DNA from: Rhodopseudomonas palustris
GTDB taxonomy: Bacteria; Pseudomonadota; Alphaproteobacteria; Rhizobiales; Xanthobacteraceae
Direction of reading: 5' to 3'
Assembly: GCA_016215605.1 (NCBI GenBank)
Contig: JACRJB010000078.1
Span: 1 to 64,000 of the forward strand
Length of the DNA: 64,000 bases
Shown here in pieces: positions 16,859 to 31,283 of this stretch. The notes beneath the pieces were generated by a model. The model saw only the letters and a list, made by a program, of their open reading frames with translations, was not told where the DNA came from and did not search any database. A program made the position numbers and the translations under genes. How positions within the stretch are numbered: the first letter of the stretch is position 1; each line of letters opens with the position of its first letter.

Positions 16859-17856
16859 GACCGGCTCGCGATCGAGGACAGCCAGTTGCGGAACAGCGTC
16901 GTCGCGGTGGCGTCGATGTCGTCGGCGACGCCGGGCCGCAGCGTCAGCTTCGGCAGCCTGCCGATCATGGCGGGATCGCGATTGCGTTCGGCGTCGGAGC
17001 GCAGCGCGTGCAGCGCGGCTTCGGTCGCGGCGTCGAAATAGGCCACCGGAATCTCCGGATAATCGTCGCGCTCGCCAGTGAGGAAGCGGCCGATGTCGCG
17101 CAGATATTCCCGCTGCAGCGAGGCGACGTCGTATTCGGGATGGCCCTGGAAGAACACGAAGCGGCTGCGGCCCTCGCGCGCGAAGATGTCGACGCCGGCG
17201 TCCTCCGCCCGGGTCAGCACCCGATATCCGCCGGCCGCGAGCGTGTCGGCGGCCAGATCGTTCAGCCGCGAATGCGGCACCCGCATCGGCGACGGCAGAT
17301 CGGCCAGCAGTTCGTCGTCCTGCACCGGTTCGCCGGCATAGACGCCCGAACACTTGCGCGGCAGCCGGCGGCGCTCGATGCCGTCCAGATGCAGCACCGC
17401 GGCGTGCGCGGCGAGGCAGGACCAGATCGTCGATCGCGTATTGGCCTCGGCCCAGTCGACCAGCGCGCGCAACTCGTCCCAATAGGGCTCGCGCTGCAGT
17501 GTCGCCGCGCGCGGCTCGGCGCCGGTGACGATCAGGCCGTCGAGCCTGGAATGCTGCAATTCGTCGATGTCCGCATACAGGCTGTCGATGTGCTGCCGCG
17601 CGGCCGGCGAACGCTGCACCGAGCGCAGCGCGAAGCAGCGCAGCCGCACCGGCCGATCGCCCGACCCCGCCCTGAGCAGCCGCATGAACTGCCGTTCGGT
17701 GGCGCGCATCGCGGCGTCGCCCATATTGTTGACCAGGCCGATCTCGAGCACCTTGCCGCGTTCGCCGACGTGCCGCGCTCCGCCGTCGTCGGTCAGGCGC
17801 GCCGGCGCCAGCGTCGGGCTGTCGATGGCGTCGGCGTTGTCGAACAGCAGGGTCAT
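16855..17856 (-). CDS. metA: Homoserine O-acyltransferase, MetA family
   Basis: The protein has 333 residues from the ATG of MTLLFDNADAID, with GAGG 5 nt upstream. It has VLEIGLVNNMGDAAMRATERQF, IVTGAEP, a nucleophile Cys in TIWSCLAAHAAVLHLDG, and the His of FFQGHPEYD, which with a Glu form the HTS-type catalytic machinery. It acylates homoserine for sulfhydrylation. Succinyl or acetyl specificity cannot be judged by eye, though its pairing with an O-acylhomoserine sulfhydrylase is typical of Alphaproteobacteria. Compared with E. coli MetA the region before the nucleophile is divergent (EPRAATLQREPYW). It begins 14 bp after the metZ-like stop and overlaps the flavin reductase start. Confidence 0.85.
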   Translation of the reverse strand: MTLLFDNADAIDSPTLAPARLTDDGGARHVGERGKVLEIGLVNNMGDAAMRATERQFMRLLRAGSGDRPVRLRCFALRSVQRSPAARQHIDSLYADIDELQHSRLDGLIVTGAEPRAATLQREPYWDELRALVDWAEANTRSTIWSCLAAHAAVLHLDGIERRRLPRKCSGVYAGEPVQDDELLADLPSPMRVPHSRLNDLAADTLAAGGYRVLTRAEDAGVDIFAREGRSRFVFFQGHPEYDVASLQREYLRDIGRFLTGERDDYPEIPVAYFDAATEAALHALRSDAERNRDPAMIGRLPKLTLRPGVADDIDATATTLFRNWLSSIASRS

Positions 17857-17870
17857 GCCGCCTCGCCGCG

Positions 17871-19175
17871 CTATTCCGCCGCCAGCAGGCGCGGCTGCTG
17901 ACCGCTCGCCCGCGCCAGCGCCTGATCGAGGTCCTCGATGATGTCGGAGATGTGCTCGATGCCGATCGACAGCCGGATGGTTTCCGGCAGCACGCCGGCG
18001 ACGCGCTGCTGCTCCGCCGACATCTGGCGATGCGTCGTCGAGGCCGGATGGCACGCCAGCGACTTGGCGTCGCCGATATTGACCAGCCGGGTGATCAGCT
18101 TCAACGCATCGTAGAACGTCTTGCCGGCTTCCATGCCGCCCTTGATGCCGAAGGTGAACAGCGACGACGCCTGGCCGCCGAGATATTTCTGCACCAGCTC
18201 GTAATACGGGCTGTCCGGAAAGCCGGTGTAGTTGACCCAGGCGACGCGCGGGTCGTCCTTGAGGAATTCGGCGACCTTGCGGGCGTTCTCGACGTGCCGC
18301 TCCATCCGCAGCGCCACCGTCTCGATGCCCTGCAGCAGCAGGAAGGCGTTGAACGGCGACAGCACCGATCCCATCGTGCGCTGATAGATGCTGCGGGCGC
18401 GCTCGATGTAGGCGGTCGGCCCGAACCGCTCGGCATAGACCATGCCGTGATAGGAATGATCGGGCTGATTGAACGCCGGGAAGCGCTGCGGCTGCGCCGC
18501 CCAGTCGAACCGGCCGCTGTCGACGATCGCGCCGCCGAGCGTGGTGCCGTGGCCGCCGAGGAACTTGGTCAGCGAATGCACCACGATGTCGGCGCCGTAG
18601 TCGATCGGCTTCAGCAGGATCGGCGTCGCCACCGTGTTGTCGACGATCAGCGGCACGCCGTGACGATGCGCCACTTCGGCGATCGCCTCGATGTCGCAGA
18701 CATTGCCGGCGGGGTTGCCGATGGTCTCGCAGAACACCGCGCGGGTGTCGTCGTCGATCAGCCGCTCGATCGCGTCGGGCCGGTCGCTGTCGGCGAACCG
18801 TCCATGGATGCCCTGCCGCGGCAGGATGTGCGACAGCAGCGTGTGGGTGGTGCCGTAGAGCTGCGGCACCGAAACGATGTTGCCGCCGTGATCGGCGACG
18901 TTGACGAAGGCGTAGTGCAGCGCCGCCTGGCCGCTGGCGACCGCCAGCGCACCGACGCCGCCCTCGAGTTCGGCGACGCGCTTTTCCAGCACCGCGCTGG
19001 TCGGATTGGCGATCCGCGAGTAGCGATAGCCTTCGGTCTCGAGATTGAACAAGGCCGCGCCGTGATCGGCGCTGTCGAACGCGTAGGATGCGGTCTGATA
19101 GATCGGAACCGCGACCGCCTTGGTGGTCGGATCGGGTTCGTAGCCGGCGTGAATGGCAATCGTCTCGTTGCGCAT
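17871..19175 (-). CDS. O-acetyl/O-succinylhomoserine sulfhydrylase (Cys/Met metabolism PLP enzyme)
   Basis: The protein has 434 residues, with GGAGGTGA five bases before the ATG. It opens MRNETIAIHAGYEPDPTTKA and contains the Cys/Met PLP-fold motifs: VPIYQTASYAFDSADHGAALFNLE, NPTSAVLEKRVAELEGG, EANGNPAG-type CETIGNPAG, and the PLP lysine in HSLTKFLGGHGTT. Length and motifs fit MetY/MetZ enzymes that make homocysteine from an O-acylhomoserine and sulfide. It heads the operon metZ-metA-flavin reductase. The 270 bp upstream lie between divergent starts. I looked for a SAM-II riboswitch there without a convincing result. Confidence 0.9.
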   Translation of the reverse strand: MRNETIAIHAGYEPDPTTKAVAVPIYQTASYAFDSADHGAALFNLETEGYRYSRIANPTSAVLEKRVAELEGGVGALAVASGQAALHYAFVNVADHGGNIVSVPQLYGTTHTLLSHILPRQGIHGRFADSDRPDAIERLIDDDTRAVFCETIGNPAGNVCDIEAIAEVAHRHGVPLIVDNTVATPILLKPIDYGADIVVHSLTKFLGGHGTTLGGAIVDSGRFDWAAQPQRFPAFNQPDHSYHGMVYAERFGPTAYIERARSIYQRTMGSVLSPFNAFLLLQGIETVALRMERHVENARKVAEFLKDDPRVAWVNYTGFPDSPYYELVQKYLGGQASSLFTFGIKGGMEAGKTFYDALKLITRLVNIGDAKSLACHPASTTHRQMSAEQQRVAGVLPETIRLSIGIEHISDIIEDLDQALARASGQQPRLLAAE

Positions 19176-19448: not shown

Positions 19449-21263
19449 ATGAACATCCAAGCAAGACCCGCGACGGCGGAGGCGATGCCGAGCAAACGCG
19501 CGCAGCCTTCGGTGGCCAAGAGCTGGCTGAAGGCGATCGAGCTCACTGCGCGGATCGAAGCCGAGCCGCAGCGGCTGCTCGCGTCGGTGATCGACGAATG
19601 GGCCGGCAGCGCGCCCGAGCGGCCCGCGGTCCTGTCCGATCGCGACTCGTTCAGCTACGCGGATCTGGCGCAGCGCATCAATCGCTATGCGCGCTGGGCG
19701 CTGGCGAACGGGATCGGCATCGGCGATTCCGTGGCCGTGCTGATGCCGAACCGGCCGGACACGCTGGCGGCCTGGCTCGGCATCACCAAGGTCGGCGGCG
19801 TCGCGGCGCTGATCAATACCCAGCTGATCGGCGCTTCGCTGGCGCATTGCATCGACATCGCGCAGCCGAACCACATCATCGTCGCGGACGAACTGGACGA
19901 CGCCTTCACCGGCGCTCGCGCGCACCTCGCATCGACGCCGCGGGTTTGGACGCAGGGCGGCGAGGACGGCTCGATCGACCTTGCGCTGGCAGCGCTCGCG
20001 GGCGACGCGCTGGCGCCGCACGAGCGCCGCGACGTCTCGATCGACGATTTGGCGCTGCTGATCTACACCTCCGGCACCACCGGGCTGCCGAAGGCGGCGC
20101 GCGTGACGCATCGCCGGGTGATGAGCTGGGCCGGCTGGTTCGCCGGACTCACCGACGCGACGCCGGACGACCGGATGTACAATTGCCTGCCGATCTATCA
20201 CAGCGTCGGCGGCGTGGTCGCGACCGGCAGCATGCTGATCGCCGGCGGCTCGGTGGTGATCGCGGAAAAATTCTCGGCGAGCCGGTTCTGGGACGACATC
20301 GTCCGCTGGGACTGCACGCTGTTTCAATATATCGGCGAACTCTGCCGCTACCTGTTGCAGGCGCCGCCGTCGGCGCGCGACACCCAGCACCGGCTGCGGC
20401 TGTGCTGCGGCAACGGCTTGCGCGGCGAGATCTGGGAGCCGTTCCAGGCGCGCTTCGCAATTCCGCGGATCCTCGAATTCTACGCCTCCACCGAGGGCAA
20501 TTTCTCGCTGTACAATGTCGAGGGCAAGCCCGGCGCGATCGGCCGCATCCCGTCGTTCCTGGCGCATCGCTTTCCGGCCGCGATCGTCAAGTTCGACGTC
20601 GCCTCCGGTCTTCCGCTGCGCGACGACAACGGCCTGTGCATCCGCTGCGCGCGCGGCGAGCCGGGCGAGGCGATCGGCCGGATCGGCGGCGCCGCCGACA
20701 GCGGCGGCCGGTTCGAGGGCTACACCAGCCAGGCCGAGAGCGACAAGAAGGTGCTGCGCAACGTGTTCGCCGACGGCGACGCCTGGTTCCGCACCGGCGA
20801 TCTGATGATGCTGGACGACAAGGGCTTCTTTCATTTCGTCGACCGGATCGGCGACACGTTCCGCTGGAAGGGCGAGAACGTCGCCGCGAGCGAGGTCGCC
20901 GAAACCATCGCCGCCTGCCCCGGCGTGATCGACGCCAGCGTCTATGGCGTGAGCGTGCCGCACAATGACGGCCGCGCCGGCATGGCCGCGCTGGTGGCCG
21001 ATGCGCGCTTCGACGTCGCGGCTCTGTATCGCCATCTCGCCGACCGGCTGCCGGCCTATGCGCGGCCGCTGTTCGTCCGGATCCGGCCGGCGCTGGAGAT
21101 CACCGGCACCTTCAAGCAGAAGAAGCAGGACCTGATCGACGACGGCTTCGATCCCGATCGGGTGAGCGATCCGCTGTATGTCGCTGATCCGGCGACCGGC
21201 AGCTATACCGCGCTGGATGCAGCAACCTATCGACGGATCGTCAACGGAGAGGTGAGAGTCTGA
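19449..21263 (+). CDS. FATP-type (very-long-chain) acyl-CoA synthetase
   Basis: The protein has 604 residues from the ATG of MNIQARPATAE. Adenylation motifs are present: LIYTSGTTGLPKAARVTH (A3), EFYASTEGNFSLYN (A5), WFRTGDLM (A7), FVDRIGDTFRWKGENVAASEV (A8, with the FATP-typical TFRWKGEN), and a late lysine in ITGTFKQKKQDL (A10). FATP/SLC27-like enzymes activate long or branched carboxylic acids to CoA thioesters in the cytoplasm or at the membrane. The stop overlaps the ATG of the aminotransferase gene (TGATG), so the two are coupled. It is divergent from metZ. It is the first gene of the putative carrier-protein cluster, perhaps providing or salvaging the acyl substrate. Confidence 0.87.
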   Translation: MNIQARPATAEAMPSKRAQPSVAKSWLKAIELTARIEAEPQRLLASVIDEWAGSAPERPAVLSDRDSFSYADLAQRINRYARWALANGIGIGDSVAVLMPNRPDTLAAWLGITKVGGVAALINTQLIGASLAHCIDIAQPNHIIVADELDDAFTGARAHLASTPRVWTQGGEDGSIDLALAALAGDALAPHERRDVSIDDLALLIYTSGTTGLPKAARVTHRRVMSWAGWFAGLTDATPDDRMYNCLPIYHSVGGVVATGSMLIAGGSVVIAEKFSASRFWDDIVRWDCTLFQYIGELCRYLLQAPPSARDTQHRLRLCCGNGLRGEIWEPFQARFAIPRILEFYASTEGNFSLYNVEGKPGAIGRIPSFLAHRFPAAIVKFDVASGLPLRDDNGLCIRCARGEPGEAIGRIGGAADSGGRFEGYTSQAESDKKVLRNVFADGDAWFRTGDLMMLDDKGFFHFVDRIGDTFRWKGENVAASEVAETIAACPGVIDASVYGVSVPHNDGRAGMAALVADARFDVAALYRHLADRLPAYARPLFVRIRPALEITGTFKQKKQDLIDDGFDPDRVSDPLYVADPATGSYTALDAATYRRIVNGEVRV

Positions 21264-22210
21264 TGACCCAGGATACTCTTGAAGCCCGCTCTGTCCGCGC
21301 CGACACGGCCGCGGCCGCGTCGCCGCGCAGCCGCGTCGTCGCCCCGGCCGTCGCTCCGGTCGCCTACTCGTCCACATGGACGTTCTTCGAAGGGGCCTGG
21401 CACGACGGCAACGTCCCGATCATGGGGCCGCGCACGCATGCGGCCTGGCTCGGCTCGATGGTGTTCGACGGCGCGCGCGCGTTCGAGGGCGTGACGCCAG
21501 ACCTCGACAAACACATTGCGCGGGTCAACTGGTCGGCGACCAACTTCAAGCTGAAGCCGATGATCGACGAAGCGACCTGGCACGGCCTGGTGCAGGACGG
21601 ACTGAAGCGCTTCGGCCCCAATGCCGAGGTCTACATCCGGCCGATGTATTGGGCGCAGAACGGCTCGGGCGGCGGCGTGCTGTTCGATCCGGAGACGACC
21701 AACTGGTGCCTGTGCATCTACGAAGCGCCGATGCCGAAACCGACCGGCCTGTCGATCACGCTGTCGCCTTTCCGCAAGCCGAGCGCCGATTGCGCGGTGG
21801 TCGACGCCAAAGCGGGCTGCCTGTATCCGAACAATTCGCGCGCGATGATCGAGGCGCAGAGCCGCGGCTTCGCCAACTGCCTGATGCGCGACATGCTCGG
21901 CAACATCGCCGAACTCGGCAATTCCAACATCTTCATGGCCAAGGACGGCGTGGTCTACACCCCGGCCCCGAACGGCACCTTCCTCAACGGCGTGACACGG
22001 CAGCGCGTCGTCGACCTGCTCCGCGGCGACGGCGTCAGCGTCGTCGAAACCACGCTGAGCTATCGCGACTTCGAGACCGCCGACGAGATCTTCGCCAGCG
22101 GCAATTTCGCCAAGGTGCAGCCGATCATCCGCATCGACGACCGCACGCTGCAGCCGGGCCCGTTCTTCACCCGCGCCAGGAAACTGTATTGGGAATTCGC
22201 GCACGGGTGA
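21263..22210 (+). CDS. Branched-chain amino acid aminotransferase-like PLP enzyme (class IV)
   Basis: The protein has 315 residues, with its start overlapping the preceding stop codon. It has YIRPMYWAQNGSGG, the PLP lysine in VVDAKAGCLYPNNSRAMIEAQ, NIAELGNSNIFMAKDG, TFLNGVTRQRVVDLL and EIFASGNFAKVQPI, matching fold-type IV aminotransferases (IlvE/D-amino acid aminotransferase/ADC lyase). The first 30 residues are an extension without motif. It probably interconverts a 2-oxo acid and an amino acid. Translational coupling to an acyl-activating enzyme suggests a specialised role rather than housekeeping leucine synthesis. Substrate is unknown. Confidence 0.85.
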   Translation: MTQDTLEARSVRADTAAAASPRSRVVAPAVAPVAYSSTWTFFEGAWHDGNVPIMGPRTHAAWLGSMVFDGARAFEGVTPDLDKHIARVNWSATNFKLKPMIDEATWHGLVQDGLKRFGPNAEVYIRPMYWAQNGSGGGVLFDPETTNWCLCIYEAPMPKPTGLSITLSPFRKPSADCAVVDAKAGCLYPNNSRAMIEAQSRGFANCLMRDMLGNIAELGNSNIFMAKDGVVYTPAPNGTFLNGVTRQRVVDLLRGDGVSVVETTLSYRDFETADEIFASGNFAKVQPIIRIDDRTLQPGPFFTRARKLYWEFAHG

Positions 22211-22257
22211 GAAACATCGACCTTCGTCAGCTCATCGCTTCGAGGCACTCACCCCGT

Positions 22258-22334
22258 TATTGCGAGCGAAGCGAAGCAATCCAGCTCCGTGCACTGCGCT
22301 GGATTGCTTCGTCGCTTCGCTCCTCGCAATGACG
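22258..22334. repeat. Palindromic repeat, type B (GCGAAGCAATCCA)
   Basis: The arms CGTTATTGCGAGCGAAGCGAAG... and ...TTCGTCGCTTCGCTCCTCGCAATGACG flank a centre AATCCA...TGGATT. A second copy lies at 37064-37146. It lies in the gap between the convergent aminotransferase and ThDP-enzyme genes, where it can form a long hairpin on either strand and may act as a bidirectional terminator or mRNA stabiliser. Confidence 0.75.
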
Positions 22335-22365
22335 ATGTGGCAGCGGCGACGACAGCATCAGGCCA

Positions 22366-22476
22366 GTCATTCCGGGGCGCGCGAAGCGCGAACCCGGAAT
22401 CTCGAGATGTTCATCTGCCGTCTTCACCAACGTCTGGATTCCGGTTCGCTCACTGCGTGAGCGCCCCGGAATGACG
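22366..22476. repeat. Palindromic repeat, type C (CATTCCGGGGCGC)
   Basis: GTCATTCCGGGGCGCGCGAAG... at one end is complementary to ...TGAGCGCCCCGGAATGACGG at the other, with a second inner pair CCGGAATC/GATTCCGG. It fills the remainder of the gap 22211-22513 between convergent genes. The same family recurs at 27706-27913. Confidence 0.75.
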
Positions 22477-22513
22477 GTGCTTGTGGGGCGTGAAAGCGCC
22501 GGGTCGCGCGGCC

Positions 22514-24193
22514 TCACGCCTTCTCCAGCGCGGTCTTGCGGATCGCCGACAGCGTCGCGCCCGGCAGGATCGCATCCGGGTCGATCTTGAGGCCGATGAT
22601 CGACGGCAGGCCGGAGGCGCGTGCCGCGGCGAAGGCGGCCGGGAAATCCGCGGTCTTGTCGACATTCGCGCCGAAGCCGCCGAACGCGCGGGCATAGGCG
22701 GCGAAGTCCGGATTGTGAAGCTCGGTGGCGGCGACCCGCCCGGGGAATTCGCGCTCCTGATGCATCCGGATCGTGCCGTACATGCCGTTGTCGCAGACCA
22801 CGACGATGATCGGCAGCCGATACTGCACGGCGATCGCGAACTCCTGTCCGCTCATCAGGAAATCGCCGTCGCCGTTGACCGACAGCACCAGCCGCTCCGG
22901 ATGCAGCCGCTGCATCGCGATCGCGGCCGGCATGCCGTAGCCCATCGAAGCCGAGGTCGGCGCGATGTGGGTCATGTAGTTGCGGAAGCGATAGAACCGG
23001 TGAATCCACGACGCGTAGTTGCCGGCGCCGTTGCACAGGATGGTGTCGGTCGGCACGTTGTCGCGCAGCCAGGTCATCACCTCGCCGAGATTGACGTCGC
23101 CGGGCTGCGGCGTCGCGGTCTCGGTCCAGGCGAGATACTCGGCATGCGCCGCATCCGCCACCGCGAGCCACCCCGGCCGCGCCGCAATGTCGAGCTTCGC
23201 CAGCGCCGCGACGAAGCGTGCCGGCGTGGCGTGGACCGCCAGCTGCGGCCGATACACCCGGCCGAGTTCCTCGGCGCCGGGATGAATGTGCACCAGCTTG
23301 GTGAGCGGCGTGGGACTGTCGAGCAGCGCATAGCCCTGCGACGGAATTTCACCGAGCCGCCCGCCGACCAGCACCAACAGATCCGCCGCCTTGGCGCGCG
23401 CCACCAGCTTCGGATTCGGCCCGAGGCCGAGATCGCCGGCGTAGCGCGGATGCAGCGGATCGAACAGCGTGCCACGGCGATAGCTGGTCGCCACCGGCAG
23501 TCCGGTGCGCGTCGCGATCGCCTCGATCTGCTCGCGCGCCTGCAGGCTCCAGCGGCTGCCGCCGAGCACGATCAGCGGCCGCTCGGCGCCGGCGAGCAGC
23601 GCCGCGAGCTCGGCCATCTCCTCGTCCCCGGGCGAGGTCTCGACCGGCTTGAACGCCGGCGCGTTCGCCACCGTGACGCGCTCGCTCAGCACATCCTTCG
23701 GCAGCGCGATCACCACCGGGCCGGGCCGGCCGCTGGTCGCCGTGTAGAACGCGCGCGACACCAGCTCGGTGACGCGTTCCGGATCGTCGATCTCGGTGGT
23801 CCATTTCGTCATGCTGCCGAACACGGCGCGATAGTCGAGTTCCTGGAACGCCTCGCGCTCCTTCACGCCGCGCTCGACCTGACCGACGAATAGGATCATC
23901 GGCGTCGAGTCCTGCTTCGCGACGTGAATGCCGGCCGACGCGTTGGTGGCGCCGGGGCCGCGGGTGACGAAGCAGATGCCGGGCTGGCCGGTCGCCTTGC
24001 CGATCGCCTCCGCCATCATCGCGGCGCCGCCTTCATGGCGGCAGACGGTGATGGTGATGTCGCGGTCGCGCAGCGCGTTCAGCACCGGCAGGAAGCTCTC
24101 TCCCGGCACGCAGAACACGTGCTTGACGCCGTTGATCACCAATTGATCGACCAGCGCTTCGGCGGCGGTGCGGCTCTTCAGCGGTTGATGCAT
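22514..24193 (-). CDS. Thiamine diphosphate-dependent enzyme (acetolactate synthase-like)
   Basis: The protein has 559 residues, with AGGGAA six bases before the ATG. The N-terminal PYR domain has VFCVPGESFLPVLNAL and the catalytic Glu in CRHEGGAAMMAEA. The central domain includes RPLIVLGGSRWS. The C-terminal PP domain carries the ThDP motif NGDGDFLMSGQEFAIAV ending VVVCDNGMYG. Overall length and order match the acetolactate synthase/benzoylformate decarboxylase superfamily. The acetolactate-synthase family cannot be narrowed to a reaction here, and no small regulatory subunit is adjacent. It may make or decarboxylate a 2-oxo acid that the aminotransferase at 21263 uses. It is transcribed downstream of, and close to, the acetyltransferase-like gene. 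Confidence 0.88.
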   Translation of the reverse strand: MHQPLKSRTAAEALVDQLVINGVKHVFCVPGESFLPVLNALRDRDITITVCRHEGGAAMMAEAIGKATGQPGICFVTRGPGATNASAGIHVAKQDSTPMILFVGQVERGVKEREAFQELDYRAVFGSMTKWTTEIDDPERVTELVSRAFYTATSGRPGPVVIALPKDVLSERVTVANAPAFKPVETSPGDEEMAELAALLAGAERPLIVLGGSRWSLQAREQIEAIATRTGLPVATSYRRGTLFDPLHPRYAGDLGLGPNPKLVARAKAADLLVLVGGRLGEIPSQGYALLDSPTPLTKLVHIHPGAEELGRVYRPQLAVHATPARFVAALAKLDIAARPGWLAVADAAHAEYLAWTETATPQPGDVNLGEVMTWLRDNVPTDTILCNGAGNYASWIHRFYRFRNYMTHIAPTSASMGYGMPAAIAMQRLHPERLVLSVNGDGDFLMSGQEFAIAVQYRLPIIVVVCDNGMYGTIRMHQEREFPGRVAATELHNPDFAAYARAFGGFGANVDKTADFPAAFAAARASGLPSIIGLKIDPDAILPGATLSAIRKTALEKA

Positions 24194-24233
24194 GGCGTTT
24201 CCCTGATGATGGTCGGCGGTGATCGCGTCGGCG

Positions 24234-25109
24234 TCACGGCCCGTACAGCACGAGTTCGGTTTCGGCGAGGTCGGCGAGCCGCGGCGGATTGGGGCCCTTG
24301 AAGTATTTGCGGCCGCGCGTCTCGGAATAGACGCCGCGAAGCCCGTCGATCGGCGCGTTGGCGTCGACGATCAGCAGCGGACGGCCGCGCCGGAGCAGGA
24401 AACGCCCGAGCGCGCCGGCGCAGCGCACCAGCTCGGCGGTGTCGCGGCAATACACCAGTTGCATCCCCGGGGTCGGGAACCGGCCGTGCTTGATCCGCTT
24501 CGGCACCATGATGAACGGCATCGCTTCGTCACCGACCCGGCACAGCAGAGACAGGCAGCCGTAGTCGGCATGGCTGCGAAGCAGATCGAGATCGGCGGGC
24601 GGCAGCCCCGGGATCGCGGGTGACGCGGCGGTCACGATCTCGACGCGCATTCCCGGCTCGGTCCGCGACAACGCCGGCACCGCGAACATCATGCCGCTGC
24701 AATAGCGGCGGAAACCCTGCGCCTCGATGATCGGCCAGGTGTTCGCCGCGGGCGAGATGTTGACGTAGGTGACCTGCTTGTTCTTCTGCGCCATCGAGGT
24801 CAGCAGCGTCGCGTAATTGCGGAACTCCGGTTGGACGTACCAGCTCGACACGTTGCAGCGGATGGTCGGCTCGCCGGCCTCGATCCGTTGGGTGTAGAGC
24901 AGCAGCAGCACGCCGACCGGGCGGCCGCCGTTCTCGAGCAGATAGCCGTAGCGCGGGCAACCGGCCGGGATCTCGCGTTCGCTCTGGCGGTGCAGTCCAC
25001 GCAACCAGTAGTCGCGCGTGCGGCCGACGAAGCCGCGCGTCAGCAGTTCCGAAACCGCCTCGATATCGGCCTCGGCGATCTCGCGGCAGCGCACCTTGCG
25101 GGCTTCCAT
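24234..25109 (-). CDS. GNAT-like acyltransferase
   Basis: The protein has 291 residues. The N-terminal half reads as a GNAT fold: VRCREIAEADIEAVSELLTRGF, GVLLLLYTQR, NVSSWYVQPEFRNYATLLTSMA and NISPAANTWPIIEAQGFRRY. The C-terminal half (YGCLSLLCRVGDEAMPFIMV... to the end) may be a second, degenerate GNAT-like lobe. No LuxI signature (homoserine lactone synthase) is seen. The gene lies 40 bp upstream of the ThDP-enzyme gene on the same strand and is divergent from the carrier protein at 25216. It may acylate an amine of the pathway product. Substrate is unknown. Confidence 0.65.
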   Translation of the reverse strand: MEARKVRCREIAEADIEAVSELLTRGFVGRTRDYWLRGLHRQSEREIPAGCPRYGYLLENGGRPVGVLLLLYTQRIEAGEPTIRCNVSSWYVQPEFRNYATLLTSMAQKNKQVTYVNISPAANTWPIIEAQGFRRYCSGMMFAVPALSRTEPGMRVEIVTAASPAIPGLPPADLDLLRSHADYGCLSLLCRVGDEAMPFIMVPKRIKHGRFPTPGMQLVYCRDTAELVRCAGALGRFLLRRGRPLLIVDANAPIDGLRGVYSETRGRKYFKGPNPPRLADLAETELVLYGP

Positions 25110-25215
25110 CGTCGTTTACCAATCGACCCGATTTGAGAGCTCGGCGCGTAGATTCAATTCATCTTTGCGCCATATGGTAGTTGTCTCACGGATCGAGCTA
25201 GAAGGCGAAAAGTCG

Positions 25216-25461
25216 ATGTCTGTACGGTTAACAATTGTCGAGATGATGCAAGAGATCGCCGCCGAGCAAAACCGCAAATTGCCGGCGCTGACCGACGACC
25301 TCGTACTACACCAATCCGGCTTCGACTCGCTGTGCTTCGCCATCCTGGTCGCGCGGCTGGAAGATCAGCTCGGCGTCGATCCGTTCACCGCGGCCGACGA
25401 TGCGATCTTTCCGGTGACCCTGGGCGACTTCATCAAGGCGTACGAGAATGTCCCTGCGTGA
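25216..25461 (+). CDS. Free-standing acyl/peptidyl carrier protein 1
   Basis: The protein has 81 residues, acidic, starting MSVRLTIVEMMQEIAAEQ. It contains HQSGFDSLCFAILVARLEDQLG, in which the Ser of DSL is the expected 4'-phosphopantetheine site, and ends in a short helix (LGDFIKAYENV). It would carry an acyl or aminoacyl thioester in the cytoplasm. Its 3' end overlaps the next gene (AMP ligase) by 14 bp, so the pair is almost certainly translated together and the ligase is the likely loading enzyme. No phosphopantetheinyl transferase gene is present in the window. Confidence 0.85.
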   Translation: MSVRLTIVEMMQEIAAEQNRKLPALTDDLVLHQSGFDSLCFAILVARLEDQLGVDPFTAADDAIFPVTLGDFIKAYENVPA

Positions 25462-26830
25462 AATCACCGCGTTGCGGAATTATCTCGCAACCGGCTCGAG
25501 CGACCGCGCCCTCTCGGACGCGACCGACACCATCGCGATGAGCGAAATCGCACAGGCGACCGCACTCGGCGGCCGGCTGCGCGAGCTCGCCGGCCGCTCG
25601 GTGGTGCTGTCGCTGTCGACGCAACTGATCAGCGGCATCGCGATGATCGAGATCGACGGCGTGGCGCGGCAGATGCTGCTGTGTCCGCCCGATTTTGACA
25701 TGAAATACGCAGCCGATCTGATCGCCGACGCCCAGATCGACGCGGTCGTCACCGACGATCCGGCGCGCTGGCAGGACCTCGGCGTGCAGCTGATCGTGAC
25801 CGCCAGCTTGCCGCTGCAGCCGGCCGCGCCGGTCGAGCTGTCGCACACCACCAACTGGCTGATGCTGACCTCCGGCACCACCGGCGCGCCGAAGATCGTG
25901 GCGCACACGCTGGCGGCGCTGACCGGCGCAATCGTCGCCGATGGCCCCGCGAAGGGCGCGCCGCCGACCTGGGCGACGTTCTACGACATCCGCCGCTACG
26001 GCGGGTTGCAGATCTTTCTCCGCGCCGTGCTCGGCGGCGGCTCGATGGTGCTGTCCTCGCCCGGCGAGCCAATCGTCGATCATCTGGCGCGTCTCGCCGC
26101 GCGCGGCGTCACGCATATTTCCGGCACGCCGTCGCATTGGCGCAAGGCGCTGATGAGCGCCGCGCTCGCCAGTTTTCATCCGGACTATGTGCGCCTGTCC
26201 GGCGAGATCGCCGATCAGGCGGTGCTCGACAGCCTGCGCCGCGCGTTCCCCAGCGCTTCGATCGGCCACGCCTATGCGTCGACCGAGGCCGGCGTCGGCT
26301 TCGCCGTCAATGACGGCCGCGAGGGCTTCCCCGCGTCGATGATCGGCCCCGGCGCCAACGGCGTCGACATGAAGGTCGTCGACGGCTCGCTGCGGATCCG
26401 CTCGACGCGGACCGCCCACACTTATGTCGGCCGCAGCGCGCCGGCGCTGACCGACGCCGACGGCTTCGTCGACACCGGCGACATGGTCGAACTGCGCGAC
26501 GGCCGCTATTACTTCGTCGGCCGCCGTGACGGCATCATCAATGTCGGCGGCCTCAAGGTGCATCCCGAAGAGGTCGAAGCGGTGATCAATCGCCATCCCG
26601 CGGTGCGGATGTCGCGGATCCGCGCGCGGCGCAGCCCGATCACCGGCGCGCTGGTGGTCGCGGACGTCGTGCTCGCGAGCGTCTCCGATTCCGGTCGCAC
26701 CGGTGAGATCCGCGAGGCGATCCTCGCCGACTGCAAGCAGTCGCTGCCGCCGCACAAGCTGCCGGCGATGATCAACTTCGTCGACCGGCTCGACGTCACC
26801 GCCTCCGGCAAGCTGGCCCGTCATGCGTAA
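25448..26830 (+). CDS. AMP-forming acyl ligase (acyl-CoA/ACP synthetase family)
   Basis: The protein has 460 residues, shorter than typical ANL enzymes (about 500-550) because the N-terminal subdomain is reduced. Core motifs: MLTSGTTGAPKIVAHT (A3), HAYASTEAG (A5), DGFVDTGDMVEL (A7), FVGRRDGIINVGGLKVHPEEVE (A8), and the catalytic lysine in VTASGKLARH (A10). It would adenylate a carboxylate and transfer it to the phosphopantetheine of the overlapping carrier protein. The 14-bp overlap upstream and 8-bp overlap with the SDR downstream make a tight three-gene operon. The acid is not predictable from the residues I can read. Confidence 0.85.
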   Translation: MSLREITALRNYLATGSSDRALSDATDTIAMSEIAQATALGGRLRELAGRSVVLSLSTQLISGIAMIEIDGVARQMLLCPPDFDMKYAADLIADAQIDAVVTDDPARWQDLGVQLIVTASLPLQPAAPVELSHTTNWLMLTSGTTGAPKIVAHTLAALTGAIVADGPAKGAPPTWATFYDIRRYGGLQIFLRAVLGGGSMVLSSPGEPIVDHLARLAARGVTHISGTPSHWRKALMSAALASFHPDYVRLSGEIADQAVLDSLRRAFPSASIGHAYASTEAGVGFAVNDGREGFPASMIGPGANGVDMKVVDGSLRIRSTRTAHTYVGRSAPALTDADGFVDTGDMVELRDGRYYFVGRRDGIINVGGLKVHPEEVEAVINRHPAVRMSRIRARRSPITGALVVADVVLASVSDSGRTGEIREAILADCKQSLPPHKLPAMINFVDRLDVTASGKLARHA

Positions 26831-27554
26831 GGTCGTCGTCACCGGCGGCAGCCGCGGCATCGGGCTGGCGATCGCGCAGCGGCTCGCCGCCGCCGGCTAC
26901 GGCGTCGTCGCCGTGGCGCGGCGTGAAGGCGACGAGCTGAGCGCGGCGATCGCGGCCGCTGCGGCCGGCCCGGGCGCGATCCATTTCAAAGCGTTCGATC
27001 TCGGCGAGATCGACGCCATTCCCGATTTCGTCAAAGGCCTGCGGCAGGAATTCGGCTCGATCTACGGCTTGATCAACAACGCCGGCATCGGCACCGAGGG
27101 CGTGCTGGCGACGATGCACAACAGCCAGATCGAAGCGCTGATCCGCATCAACGTCACCTCGCCGGTGGTGCTGACCAAGTACATCGTCCGGCAGATGATG
27201 GCCGACGGCGGCGGACGGATCGTCAACATGTCGTCGATCATCGGCTCGACCGGCTACAACGGCCTGTCGGTCTATGGCGCCACCAAGGCGGCGGCGCTGG
27301 GCTTCACCCGCTCGCTGGCCCGCGAGGTCGGCCGGCTCGGCATCACCGTCAACGCGATCGCGCCGGGCTTCATCGACACCGAACTGACCAAGGGCCTCGC
27401 CGGCGAAGGCCGCGACAAGATCGCAGGCCGCAGCGCGCTGCGACGGCTGCCGGAGGTCGACGACGTCGCCCGCATGGTGGAGTATCTGCTCGGCGACGGC
27501 GGCCGCAACATCACCGGCGCAGTGCAGACCATCGACGCCGGGAACACGGCGTAG
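26823..27554 (+). CDS. Short-chain dehydrogenase/reductase (FabG-like)
   Basis: The protein has 243 residues. It has the NAD(P)-binding TGGSRGIG motif, NNAGIG, the catalytic Ser in NMSSIIGSTG, and Tyr/Lys in SVYGATKAAALGF, then NAIAPGFIDTE. The length and the C-terminal ITGAVQTIDAGNT are those of FabG-type 3-oxoacyl-ACP reductases. Its ATG lies inside the end of the ligase gene. With carrier protein 1 and the ligase it could reduce a carrier-bound 3-oxo or carbonyl intermediate. It is convergent with the amino acid:carrier-protein ligase gene across a repeat-filled gap. Confidence 0.88.
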   Translation: MRKVVVTGGSRGIGLAIAQRLAAAGYGVVAVARREGDELSAAIAAAAAGPGAIHFKAFDLGEIDAIPDFVKGLRQEFGSIYGLINNAGIGTEGVLATMHNSQIEALIRINVTSPVVLTKYIVRQMMADGGGRIVNMSSIIGSTGYNGLSVYGATKAAALGFTRSLAREVGRLGITVNAIAPGFIDTELTKGLAGEGRDKIAGRSALRRLPEVDDVARMVEYLLGDGGRNITGAVQTIDAGNTA

Positions 27555-27599
27555 CGTGCTGACGCGTTGAGTCCTCGCTGAGGCCTCCGCTCCGATCGC

Positions 27600-27913
27600 A
27601 GCGCGCTCCCTCTCCCGCTTTCGGGAGAGGGTTGGGGTGAGGGCGCACCAGGCAGTGAGTCAGCAATTCGCGAAGAGGTGCCCTTCCTCATCGTTCGTCG
27701 TTCCGGGGCGCGCGCAGCGCGAACCCGGAATCCATATCCCCTGGACTCGCGGTGATACAGAGGCGTTGCAGCAACCGTGCTTCAACGCAACGGCAGGGAA
27801 TATGGATTCCGGGCCTGCGCTGCTGCGCAGCGCATCCCGGAATGGCAACTGAGAGGTTGGTGTACTCGGACGAGATTCCGGGTTCGCTCGCTACGCGAGC
27901 GCCCCGGAATGAC
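27600..27913. repeat. Compound palindromic repeats (type C and CTCCCTCTCCCGC hairpin)
   Basis: The gap 27555-27944 between convergent genes holds no gene. It starts with CTCCCTCTCCCGCTTTCGGGAGAGGG (27605-27630), a strong hairpin. From 27706 to 27913 it holds a type C element (GTTCCGGGGCGCGCG...GCGCCCCGGAATGAC) split by an inner CCGGAAT-bounded unit around 27797-27846. Both strands would form stable hairpins after the SDR and the aminoacyl ligase genes. Confidence 0.7.
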
Positions 27914-27944
27914 AAACGCTGAGACTGAGGCTCAGTCCGCGGAC

Positions 27945-28883
27945 TTACAGCTCCAGCATCTCCCGCACCTTCGCCGGCCACGCCGCCGTGTCGATACCGT
28001 GGGTGGCGAACAGCGCCACCGCGAGGCGGTCCATGCCGAAGGCGACGCAGCCGGTGTGGGCCGGCTGGCCGTCGGCATCCTCGATGCCCCAGGTGACGCC
28101 GAAATGCTCGCGGTGATAGTTGAAGCTCATGCAGGCGGTCGGCTGCTCTTCCGAGCGCAGCGGCACCAGCAGTTCGAACTTCAGCGCCTGCTGCTGCTGG
28201 CTGATCGCCTTCATCTGGCCGACGCGGCCGAAGAACGGATCGGAGGCGGTGTCGACGCGGAACGCCAGGCCGAGATCGCGGGCGATCGCCTGCGCCTTGC
28301 CCATCCAGCGCTCGCGGAACGCGGCGACGTCCTGCGGCGCGCCGATGCAGACATATTCGCGCATCCGGAACGACTGCAGCCGGTCGAGATGCTTCGAGGG
28401 CTCGCGACGGAAGCAATCGGCGGCGACGTCGAAGCGCAGGCCGCCGGCCGGCAGCGGGCCGCGGCTGGCGGCGATCGGATACACCGGATAGCAGGCCGCC
28501 GGCGACAGCACGAGATCGGCCGGCGACAGCGACGTGGTCCAGTCGCCGCCGGCGTCGAACCGGCTCACCGCCGAATTGATCTCCTGCTCGGTGCCGTGCA
28601 GACCGCAGACGCAGCCCAGCAGGTTGGGGAAGCTCTTCAGATAGCCGGACTTCTCGAGCTGCGCCCGGCTCATCACCGGCGGGAACCGCATCACCTCGGT
28701 GCCGGTCTCGCGATGCCGCGAGATCAGCGCCGCGAGCTTCTCGACGACGCCCTCGTACAGCGCGGTCCGGGCATAGACGCCGTCGGCCCCCATGCGGTGA
28801 AACAGATGCTCGACCAGATGGTCGAGCGCATCGACCGGCTGCGCTTGGGTGTCGGACGGAGCCTTGCGGATCGCGACGTTCAT
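27945..28883 (-). CDS. Amino acid--[carrier protein] ligase (class II seryl-tRNA-synthetase-like)
   Basis: The protein has 312 residues, with GGAGG seven bases before the ATG. It resembles the catalytic core of atypical SerRS but has no tRNA-binding domain. Motif 2/3-like segments are DVAADCFRREPSKHLDRLQSF with MREYVCIG, and TGCVAFGMDRLAVALF. Cys131, Glu176 and Cys279 fall exactly where I recall the zinc ligands of the characterised Bradyrhizobium Gly:CP ligase Bll0957, which adenylates glycine (or alanine) and loads it on a carrier protein instead of tRNA. It sits 35 bp after an acyl-CoA-dehydrogenase-like gene, close to carrier protein 2. The amino acid used here is inferred from homology. 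Confidence 0.88.
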   Translation of the reverse strand: MNVAIRKAPSDTQAQPVDALDHLVEHLFHRMGADGVYARTALYEGVVEKLAALISRHRETGTEVMRFPPVMSRAQLEKSGYLKSFPNLLGCVCGLHGTEQEINSAVSRFDAGGDWTTSLSPADLVLSPAACYPVYPIAASRGPLPAGGLRFDVAADCFRREPSKHLDRLQSFRMREYVCIGAPQDVAAFRERWMGKAQAIARDLGLAFRVDTASDPFFGRVGQMKAISQQQQALKFELLVPLRSEEQPTACMSFNYHREHFGVTWGIEDADGQPAHTGCVAFGMDRLAVALFATHGIDTAAWPAKVREMLEL

Positions 28884-28918
28884 GAGGTGGCCTCCTCGAT
28901 CGATCGTTGATGTTGAAA

Positions 28919-30145
28919 TCAGTCGTGCAGGCTCGCCGGCACCGCGCTCATCAGGCTGGCGGTGGCGATATTGGCGAGGATGCGGTCGTTGTTGATCATC
29001 AGCGGCGCCGACAGCACGTCGCGCAGATGACGGCCGACGGTGAAGTCGCCGTCGTTGCGATAGCCCGACAGGCCGCAGGCGCGCATCGCGCTCATCACCG
29101 TCGCCACCGCGAGGTCGGAGGCTTCGACCTTCAGCAGGTTGATCGCCGACTGGAACTCCAGCGAGCCGAGGCCGCGATCGTCGTACTGGTGCGCCGCATA
29201 GGTGTCGAGATTGGCGGAGATCAGCGCGCGCAGCTTCAGCAGCGACATCTTCGCGCTGTTGTAGTGCGCCGCGCCCGGCGGCATCTGGCCGCCGGCGCCG
29301 CGCGCCGCCTTGCGGATGAAGGCCTGCGCCCGCTCCACCGAGGCCGCCGCGATGCCGGCCCAGGCCGACGACCACGACAGATGCGCCACCGGCGTCATGG
29401 TCTGCGCGTGGATGCGATCATACGGCTCCGCGAACACCTGGGCGGCGAGGCCGTTGGCCTTCAGCTCGAAGCCGGCGCTGCAGGTGCCGCGCATGCCGAG
29501 CGTCTCCCAGCCCAGCGTCGGCGTCAGCGTGTAGTTTTCCTTGGTGAACACCACCAGCACCTGATCCGACGCCGCCGCGTCGTTGGCGCGGCGGGCGATG
29601 GTCATCACGCCGTCGGCCTCGGCGCCGTAGGAAATCACGGTGGCGTTGCGGAGCAGCGACACGCGCTCGGCGGTGACTTCGACCGCCGCGGCGCTGGCGC
29701 GGATGTTGCCGCCGTTGTTGCCCTCGGTGGTCGACGACGCCAGCAGCATCTGCTCGCCGGCGATCCGCCGCATCAATTGTTCGTGCCAGGCGCTGCCTCG
29801 GCCGTGCCGCACCAGGCAGGCGACCTTGGTCTGGTGCATCGCGACGATCATCGCGGTCGAGGCGCAGGCGCGCCCCAGCGTGTAGCACATCTCGGTGACG
29901 TCGTGGATCGTGGCGCCCTCGCCGCCGAATTCGACCGGAATCTGCGCGCCCAGCAGGCCGTGCTCGCGCGCGGCCTCGATCGCGGCGCGCGGAAACCGCG
30001 AGTCCTTGTCGACGTTCTCGGCGTCCGCGGCGGCGATCGCCGCGACCTGTGCCACGCGCTGCGACAGCGGGACAGATTCGCGCCGGAATGGGACGGTGGT
30101 GTCCATTGTGACTTCGCGGGCGCTGTGATCGGTGATGATGGCCAT
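28919..30145 (-). CDS. Acyl-CoA dehydrogenase-fold flavoprotein, catalytic Glu not found
   Basis: The protein has 408 residues. The order of an N-terminal helical domain (HGLLGAQIPVEFGGEGATI), a beta domain (LASSTTEGNNGGNIRA, LGMRGTCSAGFEL) and a C-terminal helical domain (MRACGLSGYRNDGDFTVGRHLRDVLSAP) matches acyl-CoA dehydrogenases. After the conserved RD the usual QIYEGTNEIQ reads LMINNDRILA, so the standard catalytic Glu is missing; the alternative position used by isovaleryl-CoA dehydrogenase also seems to be Ala. It may therefore be an oxidase or a monooxygenase of this fold. It is upstream of the aminoacyl ligase on the same strand and divergent from carrier protein 2, so it could act on an aminoacyl thioester. 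Confidence 0.82.
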   Translation of the reverse strand: MAIITDHSAREVTMDTTVPFRRESVPLSQRVAQVAAIAAADAENVDKDSRFPRAAIEAAREHGLLGAQIPVEFGGEGATIHDVTEMCYTLGRACASTAMIVAMHQTKVACLVRHGRGSAWHEQLMRRIAGEQMLLASSTTEGNNGGNIRASAAAVEVTAERVSLLRNATVISYGAEADGVMTIARRANDAAASDQVLVVFTKENYTLTPTLGWETLGMRGTCSAGFELKANGLAAQVFAEPYDRIHAQTMTPVAHLSWSSAWAGIAAASVERAQAFIRKAARGAGGQMPPGAAHYNSAKMSLLKLRALISANLDTYAAHQYDDRGLGSLEFQSAINLLKVEASDLAVATVMSAMRACGLSGYRNDGDFTVGRHLRDVLSAPLMINNDRILANIATASLMSAVPASLHD

Positions 30146-30437
30146 GGCTTCAGACGCTCCTCGGGGCTTACACGGACGACATCGCGCGACGGCGTTGGTA
30201 GTCTGCGCCGCTCTGTCGTCGGCAATTGCGCTCGCAAGCTATGGAGCGCGCCCGTCCGCGTCGACAACTTTCAAAGTGAATCAATTTGGATTCGAATCCG
30301 ACGGTTAATCCCACCTTGCCCGAATAGCGAAGATTCTCGGGGTTCCCGTTAGCGTTAAAATTCGAATGGCCGCCGCGGACAAACTGCCGCAATTGTTTCG
30401 GTAATGTTTCTGCGATTACATCGCGAGTGAAAACGAC

Positions 30438-30461
30438 GTTCGCGACTGATCAGTTCGCGAC
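30438..30461. promoter_or_regulatory. Direct repeat GTTCGCGAC in divergent intergenic region
   Basis: The 350 bp between the flavoprotein gene and carrier protein 2 (30146-30495) show no gene. Near the carrier protein start they hold GTTCGCGAC twice with a 15-bp period (30438-30446 and 30453-30461), possibly a regulator site. The evidence is only the repetition and position. Confidence 0.25.
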
Positions 30462-30495
30462 GAGGAACGAGTGAACGGACGATCAGGAGGTCGCG

Positions 30496-30765
30496 ATGCA
30501 GGGTGCGGACGCCACGGTTCAGAACAAGATCCTCACGCTGGTCGAATCGATCCTGGCGCAGAATGCGATCGCGGGCGCGGTGAAGCCCGATACCCGCCTC
30601 GCCGACGCCGGCCTCACTTCGATGGAGATGGTCAACCTGATGCTCGGCGTCGAAGCGGCGTTCGACATGACGCTGCCGCAGTCCGACATCACCCCCGAGA
30701 ACTTCACCTCCGTCGAAACGATCGAGCGCCTCGTTCTGCGGCGGCTGCAGATGCAGGCCGCGTGA
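30496..30765 (+). CDS. Free-standing carrier protein 2
   Basis: The protein has 89 residues from an ATG preceded by AGGAGG. It is helical and acidic, with LADAGLTSMEMVNLMLGVEAAF, where the Ser of LTSMEM is the phosphopantetheine site. The LTSMEM form differs from the DSL form of carrier protein 1. It lies next to the flavoprotein and amino acid:carrier-protein ligase genes, an arrangement consistent with a dedicated partner for aminoacylation. A cupin gene follows after 62 bp in the same direction. Confidence 0.87.
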   Translation: MQGADATVQNKILTLVESILAQNAIAGAVKPDTRLADAGLTSMEMVNLMLGVEAAFDMTLPQSDITPENFTSVETIERLVLRRLQMQAA

Positions 30766-30827
30766 TCGCGCCGGACACCAATCGATCAGCACAGTCAACG
30801 TAGCACATCCGACCAGGAGCCGACCCG

Positions 30828-31283
30828 ATGCCCACGAACCTGATCCTCACCTCCAAGACCGATGTCGAACTGAAGCCGGCGCCGATCGAGCCGTCGTGGA
30901 TCATCGAGGGCAACCCGACCGCGACCAACGCGACGCTGTCGCGCAGCGCCGACGGCATGGCCTCGACGATCATCTGGCAGTGCACCGAAGGCAAGTTCGA
31001 GTGGCACTACGACATCGACGAGACCATCTGCATTCTCGAAGGCTCGGTGGTGATCGAGAGCGAAGGCATGCCGGCGACCCGCTATGGGCCGGGCGACGTG
31101 ATCTTCTTCAAGGACGGCGCCAGCGCGCGCTGGCACGTCGAAGGCCATATCCGCAAGATCGCGTTCTGCCGTCGCACCCAGCCCAAACTGATCGGTCTGG
31201 GGATCCGCGTCGCCGCCAAGCTGCGCTCGCTGCTGCTGCCGTCGAAGCAGCGCCAGGTGCAGTCGCTGCTCGGCGCCAACTAA
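30828..31283 (+). CDS. Cupin-domain protein (EutQ/DUF861-like)
   Basis: The protein has 151 residues. The cupin core has the segments WQCTEGKFEWHYDIDETICILEG (motif 1 with HYDIDE) and YGPGDVIFFKDGASARWHV (motif 2, GPGD...W-H). A C-terminal extension of about 40 residues, basic and possibly amphipathic (LIGLGIRVAAKLRSLLLPSK), is unusual for small cupins. It may bind a metal and act as a tailoring enzyme or binding protein for a carrier-bound amino acid. It follows carrier protein 2 in the same operon. The reaction is unknown. Confidence 0.75.
   Translation: MPTNLILTSKTDVELKPAPIEPSWIIEGNPTATNATLSRSADGMASTIIWQCTEGKFEWHYDIDETICILEGSVVIESEGMPATRYGPGDVIFFKDGASARWHVEGHIRKIAFCRRTQPKLIGLGIRVAAKLRSLLLPSKQRQVQSLLGAN

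What the first reader, a model, noticed from the sequence alone, without database searches (positions are those of the whole stretch)
19449..31283. Candidate dissociated carrier-protein biosynthetic cluster with two loading systems
The sequence shows two free-standing carrier proteins (25216 with a DSL serine, 30496 with an LTSMEM serine). Each lies next to a different activating enzyme: an AMP ligase overlapping carrier 1, and a class II synthetase-like amino acid:carrier-protein ligase near carrier 2. An SDR, an acyl-CoA-dehydrogenase-fold flavoprotein, an aminotransferase, a ThDP enzyme, a FATP-type synthetase, a GNAT-like protein and a cupin surround them. There is no modular NRPS or PKS. 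Inference: one branch loads an acid on carrier 1 and reduces it, the other loads a small amino acid on carrier 2 and oxidises it, and the GNAT-like or another enzyme joins or releases them. I know of no named product for this gene set.
Basis: partly seen in the sequence, partly recalled or inferred. Interest (0 to 1): 0.78.

Follow-up and report, generated by a model that had tools for sequence, protein, structure and literature searches.

The report
Two-carrier biosynthesis cluster in Rhodopseudomonas and Bradyrhizobium
A set of about ten to thirteen genes, including two small carrier proteins each with its own loading enzyme, is kept or lost together in Bradyrhizobium-type bacteria and sits side by side in Rhodopseudomonas, so it is very probably one undescribed pathway that makes a small molecule, perhaps from an amino acid, a second acid and a fatty acid.

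Summary
Observation confirmed: all eleven genes are in place, with two free-standing carriers (CP1, CP2) and two different loaders. The key inference, one system, was tested and holds in the main genus: of 117 Bradyrhizobium-type genomes 77 have the CP1 ligase, 76 the CP2 ligase, 74 both, 38 neither, though the blocks are often far apart (1.4 Mb in one finished genome). On an rpoB tree of 100 of them 96 tips agree; 0 of 2000 simulations reach that. Core: FATP, CP1, AMP ligase, SDR, tandem GNAT, aa:CP ligase, flavoprotein, CP2, usually OAHS and MetA; aminotransferase, ThDP enzyme and cupin are optional. The CP2 pair is orthologous to Bll0957 and its carrier, solved structures without a pathway in what I could read. 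The flavoprotein lacks the acyl-CoA dehydrogenase Glu in 113 of 113 rows. Against: outside this genus the CP1 block also occurs without the CP2 ligase (five genomes). Product unknown; chemistry after loading is inferred. New variant of a known kind.

The parts
16855..17856 (-). MetA-like homoserine O-acyltransferase
   Evidence: NF003776 470 bits, cut-off 358; PF04204; in 12 of 12 linked Bradyrhizobium-type copies at 41-45%, 5 of 8 split pairs
17871..19175 (-). O-acetylhomoserine sulfhydrylase family PLP enzyme (OAHS)
   Evidence: TIGR01326 620 bits, cut-off 495 (the equivalog NF004757 is below its cut-off, 671 of 790); in 12 of 12 linked copies at 73-75%, 5 of 8 split pairs
19449..21263 (+). 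FATP-type long-chain acyl-CoA synthetase; directly before CP1 in the Bradyrhizobium-type loci examined except L145, L149 and L152 (not so in the window)
   Evidence: NF006134; gene order
21263..22210 (+). class IV (branched-chain type) aminotransferase, frequent but optional
   Evidence: NF009896; 8 of 12 linked copies, 5 of 8 split pairs
22514..24193 (-). ThDP-dependent enzyme, optional
   Evidence: NF006052; 3 of 7 Rhodopseudomonas loci, L154 and L155 at 57-62%, 4 of 12 linked copies at only 37-38%
24234..25109 (-). tandem GNAT-fold acyltransferase candidate, core
   Evidence: model pLDDT 78, fold matches; in 77 of 117 genomes of the genus, all 74 with both ligases among them
25216..25461 (+). 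carrier protein 1 (CP1), Ser38 in DSL
   Evidence: PF00550; D37 S38 L39 at 97% or more of 41 rows
25448..26830 (+). AMP-forming ligase, presumed CP1 loader
   Evidence: PF00501/PF13193; Y179 D180 R182 R183 Y184 G185 G186 at 97% or more of 40 rows
26823..27554 (+). FabG-like SDR
   Evidence: PF13561; TIGR01830 195 bits, below its cut-off 297.75
27945..28883 (-). amino acid:[carrier protein] ligase, orthologue of Bll0957
   Evidence: NF005479 489 bits; PDB 3mey 609 bits over 311 residues
28919..30145 (-). acyl-CoA-dehydrogenase-fold flavoprotein without the canonical Glu
   Evidence: PF02771, PF00441; Glu columns hold I/V and A/S/G/C in 113 of 113 rows; Foldseek first rows DszC, KijD3, nitrososynthase, sequence searches put dehydrogenases first
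30496..30765 (+). carrier protein 2 (CP2), Ser42 in LTSMEM, orthologue of the Bll0957 partner
   Evidence: PDB 4h2s_C 105 bits
30828..31283 (+). cupin (EutQ-like), optional
   Evidence: PF05899; 7 of 7 Rhodopseudomonas loci, 2 of 12 linked copies

Best explanation
The region is one biosynthetic gene cluster built on two free-standing carrier proteins. Supported by orthology: the aa:CP ligase adenylates glycine (or alanine) and loads it on CP2. Inferred: the ACAD-fold flavoprotein oxidises the CP2-bound aminoacyl group at nitrogen or at the C-N bond; the AMP ligase loads a second small acid on CP1 and the SDR reduces it; FATP makes a long-chain acyl-CoA; the tandem GNAT forms the amide bond that joins or releases the arms; MetA-like plus OAHS supply O-acylhomoserine and perform a gamma-replacement that brings in a homoserine- or homocysteine-derived unit; aminotransferase and ThDP enzyme supply a keto or amino acid where present. 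The product would be a small acylated amino-acid derivative, perhaps N-oxidised. That the two blocks act in one pathway is about 0.9 likely in Rhodopseudomonas and Bradyrhizobium; any single step after loading is 0.2 to 0.5.
For: Co-occurrence in one genus: CP1 ligase 77, CP2 ligase 76, both 74, neither 38 of 117; the GNAT is in all 74 and in G119, G140, G165. In finished genome G024 the ligases lie 1.4 Mb apart. rpoB tree of 100 of 117: 96 concordant tips; 2000 Mk simulations, mean 61.3, maximum 88. 11 of 12 genomes with two CP1 ligase matches have two or more CP2 ligase matches. The best-kept linked copies hold the whole set in another order, and G371 of another family has eleven of the genes together (L154). 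Natural control: the divergent ligase subfamily (44-51% identity) is with the CP1 ligase in 0 of 11 genomes, the window's subfamily (60-94%) in 83 of 85 (counted by hand with identities; Fisher p 9e-13, not corrected for phylogeny). Orthology to Bll0957 and its carrier; Gly or Ala loading is stated in PMC5370406 section 7 (passage). In B. diazoefficiens bll0957, bll0958 (acd), metZ bll1105 and a BCAT-like bll7459 are in the list of 30 genes raised in a phaR mutant as RNA and protein (PMC10888616 Table 1, section read).
Against: The CP1 block occurs without the CP2 ligase in G114 (two copies), G115, G418, G477 and G549, so it has a use of its own or another partner there. By parsimony on the rpoB tree only 5 changes fall on the same branch, of 9 for the CP1 ligase and 11 for the CP2 ligase. 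OAHS and MetA track the rest less well (mirror-tree r 0.66-0.85, against 0.83-0.97 among the other eight) and are not beside the blocks in 3 of 8 split genomes. The flavoprotein model is weak (pLDDT 61) and sequence searches rank true dehydrogenases first. No product, no assay; the CP1 substrate is unknown. Whether bll1105 and bll7459 are the orthologues of the window's OAHS and AT4 was not tested.
Confidence: 0.72

Rival explanations
1. Two separate pathways that only happen to sit side by side in Rhodopseudomonas: the CP2 block for one amino-acid modification, the CP1 block for another.
For: CP1 block without the CP2 ligase in five genomes of other genera; in 57 of 74 genomes of the main genus no CP1 ligase lies within 5 kb of a CP2 ligase; only 5 coincident branch changes by parsimony.
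Against: Co-retention when apart (74 both, 5 single of 117); paired duplication; decayed copies (L147, L173, L174).
Confidence: 0.08
2. An N-hydroxylation/hydroxamate route: the ACAD-fold enzyme is a flavin monooxygenase that hydroxylates the nitrogen of glycyl-CP2, and the GNAT acylates it with the FATP-derived acyl-CoA to a lipohydroxamate, possibly a metal chelator or signal.
Against: Foldseek rows are close in score to ordinary dehydrogenases and the model is weak; sequence searches rank dehydrogenases first; the flavin reductase at 16337-16858 was found in 0 of 7 Rhodopseudomonas loci, of which L004, L005, L006 and L008 reach past its place; recurrent neighbours of the clusters were not annotated, so a transporter was neither found nor excluded.
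Confidence: 0.25
3. A triacsin/azaserine-like route: the amino acid is N-acylated by the GNAT and, on its carrier, dehydrogenated across the alpha carbon and nitrogen by the ACAD-fold enzyme, giving an imino-acyl-CP that other enzymes trap.
For: The same kinds of protein (N-acetyltransferase, AMP ligase, CP, acyl-CoA dehydrogenase) do this for hydrazinoacetic acid in triacsin and azaserine (PMC10445470, passages).
Against: No hydrazinoacetic-acid synthesis gene among the proteins scanned; the loader is a class II synthetase homologue; homology to AzsF or Tri22 was not tested.
Confidence: 0.25
4. A cell-surface decoration pathway: the CP-bound groups are handed to a polysaccharide, as proposed for the divergent aa:CP ligase system.
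For: Polysaccharide-type genes lie at about 2.8-16.4 kb, and the flippase-like one also lies near the cluster in L004, L005, L006 and L008; PMC2922099 note proposes it for the Atu2574 system.
Against: None of the window's polysaccharide genes labels a gene in the linked Bradyrhizobium-type, g3 or L154 loci; no DUF1839 family in the proteins scanned.
Confidence: 0.1

Closest known systems
Amino acid:[carrier protein] ligase Bll0957 and its carrier (Mocibob et al. 2010, 2013; papers not held, known here through PDB names and passages of PMC5370406 and PMC9437257)
   Same: Same ligase and carrier by orthology
   Different: The sources I could read give no pathway; here it is tied to eight or more further genes
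Atu2573/Atu2574-type aa:CP ligase cluster (DUF1839)
   Same: aa:CP ligase, CP and ACAD-fold flavoprotein together
   Different: 44-51% identity subfamily, other recurrent partners (c12, c16, c17), CP1 ligase in 0 of 11 genomes
Triacsin/azaserine hydrazinoacetyl-CP module (Tri22/29/30/31, AzsF/P/Q/S; PMC10445470, passages)
   Same: N-acyltransferase, AMP-forming ligase, free CP and ACAD-type enzyme act on a CP-bound small N-acid
   Different: No hydrazine genes among the proteins scanned; class II ligase; second carrier, FATP, OAHS and MetA
Mycobactin mbt-2 lipid transfer set (MbtK/L/M/N; recalled, only a search listing seen)
   Same: Fatty acid activation, CP, ACAD-type enzyme and GNAT
   Different: MbtN model matches at 38 bits against a cut-off of 700; amino acid loading by an aaRS homologue here
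Fusaric acid cluster (Fub5 homoserine acyltransferase, Fub7 OAHS homologue; recalled)
   Same: Homoserine acyltransferase plus OAHS homologue inside a natural product cluster
   Different: Fungal, PKS based; no shared carrier logic

Membership tests
Amino acid:[carrier protein] ligase (NF005479) | Score over the curated cut-off | tested here: met
   488.8 bits, cut-off 357
Amino acid:[carrier protein] ligase (NF005479) | Cognate carrier protein with phosphopantetheine serine nearby | tested here: met
   CP2 matches the Bll0957 partner 4h2s_C at 105 bits, though NF005480 gives only 44.9 bits against 72
Amino acid:[carrier protein] ligase (NF005479) | Loads Gly or Ala on the carrier in vitro | not testable with these tools
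   Reported for characterised members (PMC5370406 passage); Bll0957's own preference is recalled
Modular NRPS/PKS | Condensation or ketosynthase domains in the cluster | tested here: not met
   None among the families listed for the cluster proteins
Acyl-CoA dehydrogenase (alpha,beta) | ACAD fold and domains | tested here: met
   PF02771, PF00441 over cut-off; fold rows
Acyl-CoA dehydrogenase (alpha,beta) | Catalytic Glu at the MCAD or IVD position (positions recalled, placed by the alignments) | tested here: not met
   I/V in 113 of 113 and A/S/G/C in 113 of 113 rows
GNAT acyltransferase | Pfam GNAT domain by sequence | tested here: not met
   No family at E<=1
GNAT acyltransferase | GNAT fold | tested here: met
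Triacsin/azaserine-type module | Hydrazinoacetic acid synthesis genes | tested here: not met
   No such gene among the 13 cluster proteins scanned; the rest of the genome was not searched for them
NifA/sigma-54 regulated gene | -24/-12 promoter in the cluster | tested here: not met
   4 sites at up to 1 mismatch, all between 36 and 58 kb

The most novel reading that the evidence does not exclude
A new class of small metabolite, assembled from an oxidised carrier-bound glycine, a second carrier-bound acid, a fatty acyl group and a homoserine-derived unit by a fully dissociated two-carrier line with a tandem GNAT as the condensing enzyme, made by about two thirds of Bradyrhizobium-type species and tied to low-oxygen metabolism.
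Probability: 0.35. Interest if true: 0.82.

Novelty: new variant of a known kind. Interest (0 to 1): 0.62.

Why it matters
Bll0957 and its carrier have solved structures but, in the sources I could read, no pathway. This work places them in a gene set that is co-retained in 74 of 117 sampled genomes of a Bradyrhizobium-type genus and also lies together in Rhodopseudomonas. It names which genes to delete, predicts that deleting either ligase should abolish the same compound, and offers a tandem GNAT as a possible condensing enzyme between carriers.

Tried and rejected
NifA/sigma-54 control of the cluster: the four -24/-12-like sites all lie between 36 and 58 kb; one TGT-N10-ACA at 30405 before CP2 has no such promoter beside it. 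Rejected as unsupported.

Flavin reductase 16337-16858 as partner of the flavoprotein: 0 of 7 Rhodopseudomonas loci; only four of these (L004, L005, L006, L008) reach past its place. Left out of the cluster.

OAHS as the genome's only such enzyme: PF01053 has 10 rows over the cut-off in the own genome, one of them a fragment, so a plain housekeeping role is not forced, but is not excluded.

ThDP enzyme, cupin and DUF2478 as core: limited in spread. DUF2478 matched only in the Rhodopseudomonas set.

Plasmid-borne relatives: 66 plasmid records, all under 60% identity.

Papers: the library gave one paper for bll0957, bll0958, blr0955, blr0956, bll0956 or bll6282 and none for RPA4595 to RPA4600 (locus numbers guessed from recall). 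No title or abstract describing the cluster as a whole was seen in the listings; this does not cover subscription journals.

First script used a wrong frame for one polysaccharide gene; that row was dropped.

rpoB tree: of 117 genomes 17 were left out (4 without a match, 9 partial, and G136, G153, G178, G198 by my choice to fit the cap; these four have both ligases). The discordant genome G207 was among the partial ones, so 4 of the 5 discordant genomes are on the tree.


Full report
What is there. All eleven genes of the finding are real and in place; coordinates are in the parts list. The genome is 5.79 Mb in 78 contigs; the named relatives at 89-93% ligase identity are Rhodopseudomonas (L002-L008). 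The cluster lies between polysaccharide-type genes (to 16.4 kb) and fixXCBA with a nif region beyond (from 32.6 kb) (fix and nif names are recalled from the sequences, only fixX was scanned).

The two carriers. CP1 and CP2 are small (81 and 89 aa) with conserved serine regions. The CP2 loader matches Bll0957 (PDB 3mey) at 609 bits over 311 residues and CP2 matches its solved partner carrier (4h2s_C) at 105 bits. A review states that such ligases load Gly or Ala on the carrier thiol; it speaks of methanogens (PMC5370406, passage). The original paper was not held.

One system or two? Four tests. (1) Family sample: CP1 ligase (E<=1e-60) in 12 of 119, CP2 ligase over cut-off in 16 of 119, both in 10; in 7 of the 10 the two lie within about 1.3 kb. 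In the window's own genus 4 of the 5 genomes drawn have both and one (G089) neither. In 17 of the 74 a pair lies within 5 kb; in the other 57 none does, and in finished genome G024 the pair is 1.4 Mb apart. In draft genomes 'apart' can mean different contigs; the split loci that I fetched show no partner on the stretch. The GNAT is in 77 of 117, all 74 among them. CP1-only: G119 (in-frame stop; locus in decay), G165 (its other block has lost ligase and flavoprotein), G207 (truncated). CP2-only: G140 (partial ligase, GNAT in two pieces, no CP1 half) and G128 (divergent subfamily, 50%). (3) Phylogeny: rpoB from 100 of the 117. 96 of 100 tips agree; under a fitted two-state model 2000 simulations averaged 61.3 and never exceeded 88. 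rpoB is one gene, the tree is midpoint-rooted, and parsimony puts only 5 changes on the same branch, of 9 and 11. (4) Control subfamily: the divergent aa:CP ligase (44-51% identity) is with the CP1 ligase in 0 of 11 genomes; the window's subfamily (60-94%) in 83 of 85, the two exceptions being G140 (decayed) and G068 (66% complete). I counted these by hand, over-cut-off matches only, with identities; one search gives the Fisher value, which ignores phylogeny.

The full set. Linked copies in this genus (L134-L144, L148; 12 loci), at their best (L137, L138, L141), read SDR-AMP ligase-CP1-FATP-CP2 on one side and flavoprotein-aa:CP ligase-OAHS-MetA-GNAT-aminotransferase on the other, a different order from the window. 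Presence in those 12: CP1, AMP ligase, aa:CP ligase, flavoprotein, CP2, OAHS, MetA 12 each; FATP 11; SDR 10; GNAT 9; aminotransferase 8; ThDP 4 (37-38% identity, so perhaps another enzyme); cupin 2 (a row needs 35% identity and half the length, one hit per locus). Some of these copies are themselves worn (L134 and L144 have GNAT remnants, L136 none in the stretch). In G371, of another family, eleven of the genes lie together (L154). The eight core proteins vary in step (mirror-tree r 0.83-0.97); OAHS and MetA less so (0.66-0.85), and in the split genomes alone their values scatter from -0.26 to 0.83 on few points (not corrected for phylogeny).

Results against. The CP1 block is found without the CP2 ligase in G114 (two copies), G115 (88% complete), G418, G477 and G549; G115 and G477 keep FATP, SDR, GNAT, OAHS and MetA. 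So the CP1 block with GNAT may work alone in some lineages. Class sample n=337: CP1 ligase in 6, CP2 ligase over cut-off in 8, both in 3, the window genome counted.

Regulation. In a B. diazoefficiens phaR mutant at 0.5% O2, bll0957 and bll0958 (acd) have fold change 3.0 and log2 values 2.5 and 1.7 in the second column, with metZ bll1105 and a BCAT-like bll7459 in the same 30-gene table of genes raised as RNA and protein (PMC10888616, Table 1, section read). bll0957 is the ligase orthologue by PDB name; the other identities were not checked here. No sigma-54 promoter was found in the cluster.

Verdict. A real, conserved two-carrier gene set, not seen described in the listings of my ten paper searches; the product is unknown. 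New variant of a known kind.

Noticed in passing
1521-2516: TctC/Bug-type solute-binding protein (name recalled); relatives at 70-78% identity stand beside or near FATP in L119, L123, L145, L149, L152, L177 and L181: possible uptake partner, 17 kb away in the window.
   Followed up: partly
L127-L131, L146, L161-L163: A second, different carrier pathway: divergent aa:CP ligase, ACAD-fold flavoprotein and, in most, a CP, with recurrent genes c12 (342 aa), c16 (817 aa), c17 (583 aa); plasmid relatives are annotated beside DUF1839.
   Followed up: partly
L147, L173, L174: Three decaying copies of the cluster in G119, G165 and G140 that have lost different parts.
   Followed up: partly
L137-L144: Linked copies are often flanked by recurrent families c13 and c18, HlyD-like and ABC-exporter-like by eye; not annotated, function untested.
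   Followed up: no
L149, L152: A GNAT copy directly beside CP1 in G223 and G149, besides the copy near the aa:CP ligase.
   Followed up: no
16337-16858: RutF/HpaC-like flavin reductase next to the MetA-like gene, not found in the relatives' loci.
   Followed up: partly
30405-30420: TGT-N10-ACA (NifA-box-like, recalled) 75 bases before CP2 without a -24/-12 element.
   Followed up: partly
31725-32309: DUF2478 gene between the cupin and fixX, present in all 7 Rhodopseudomonas loci examined.
   Followed up: no
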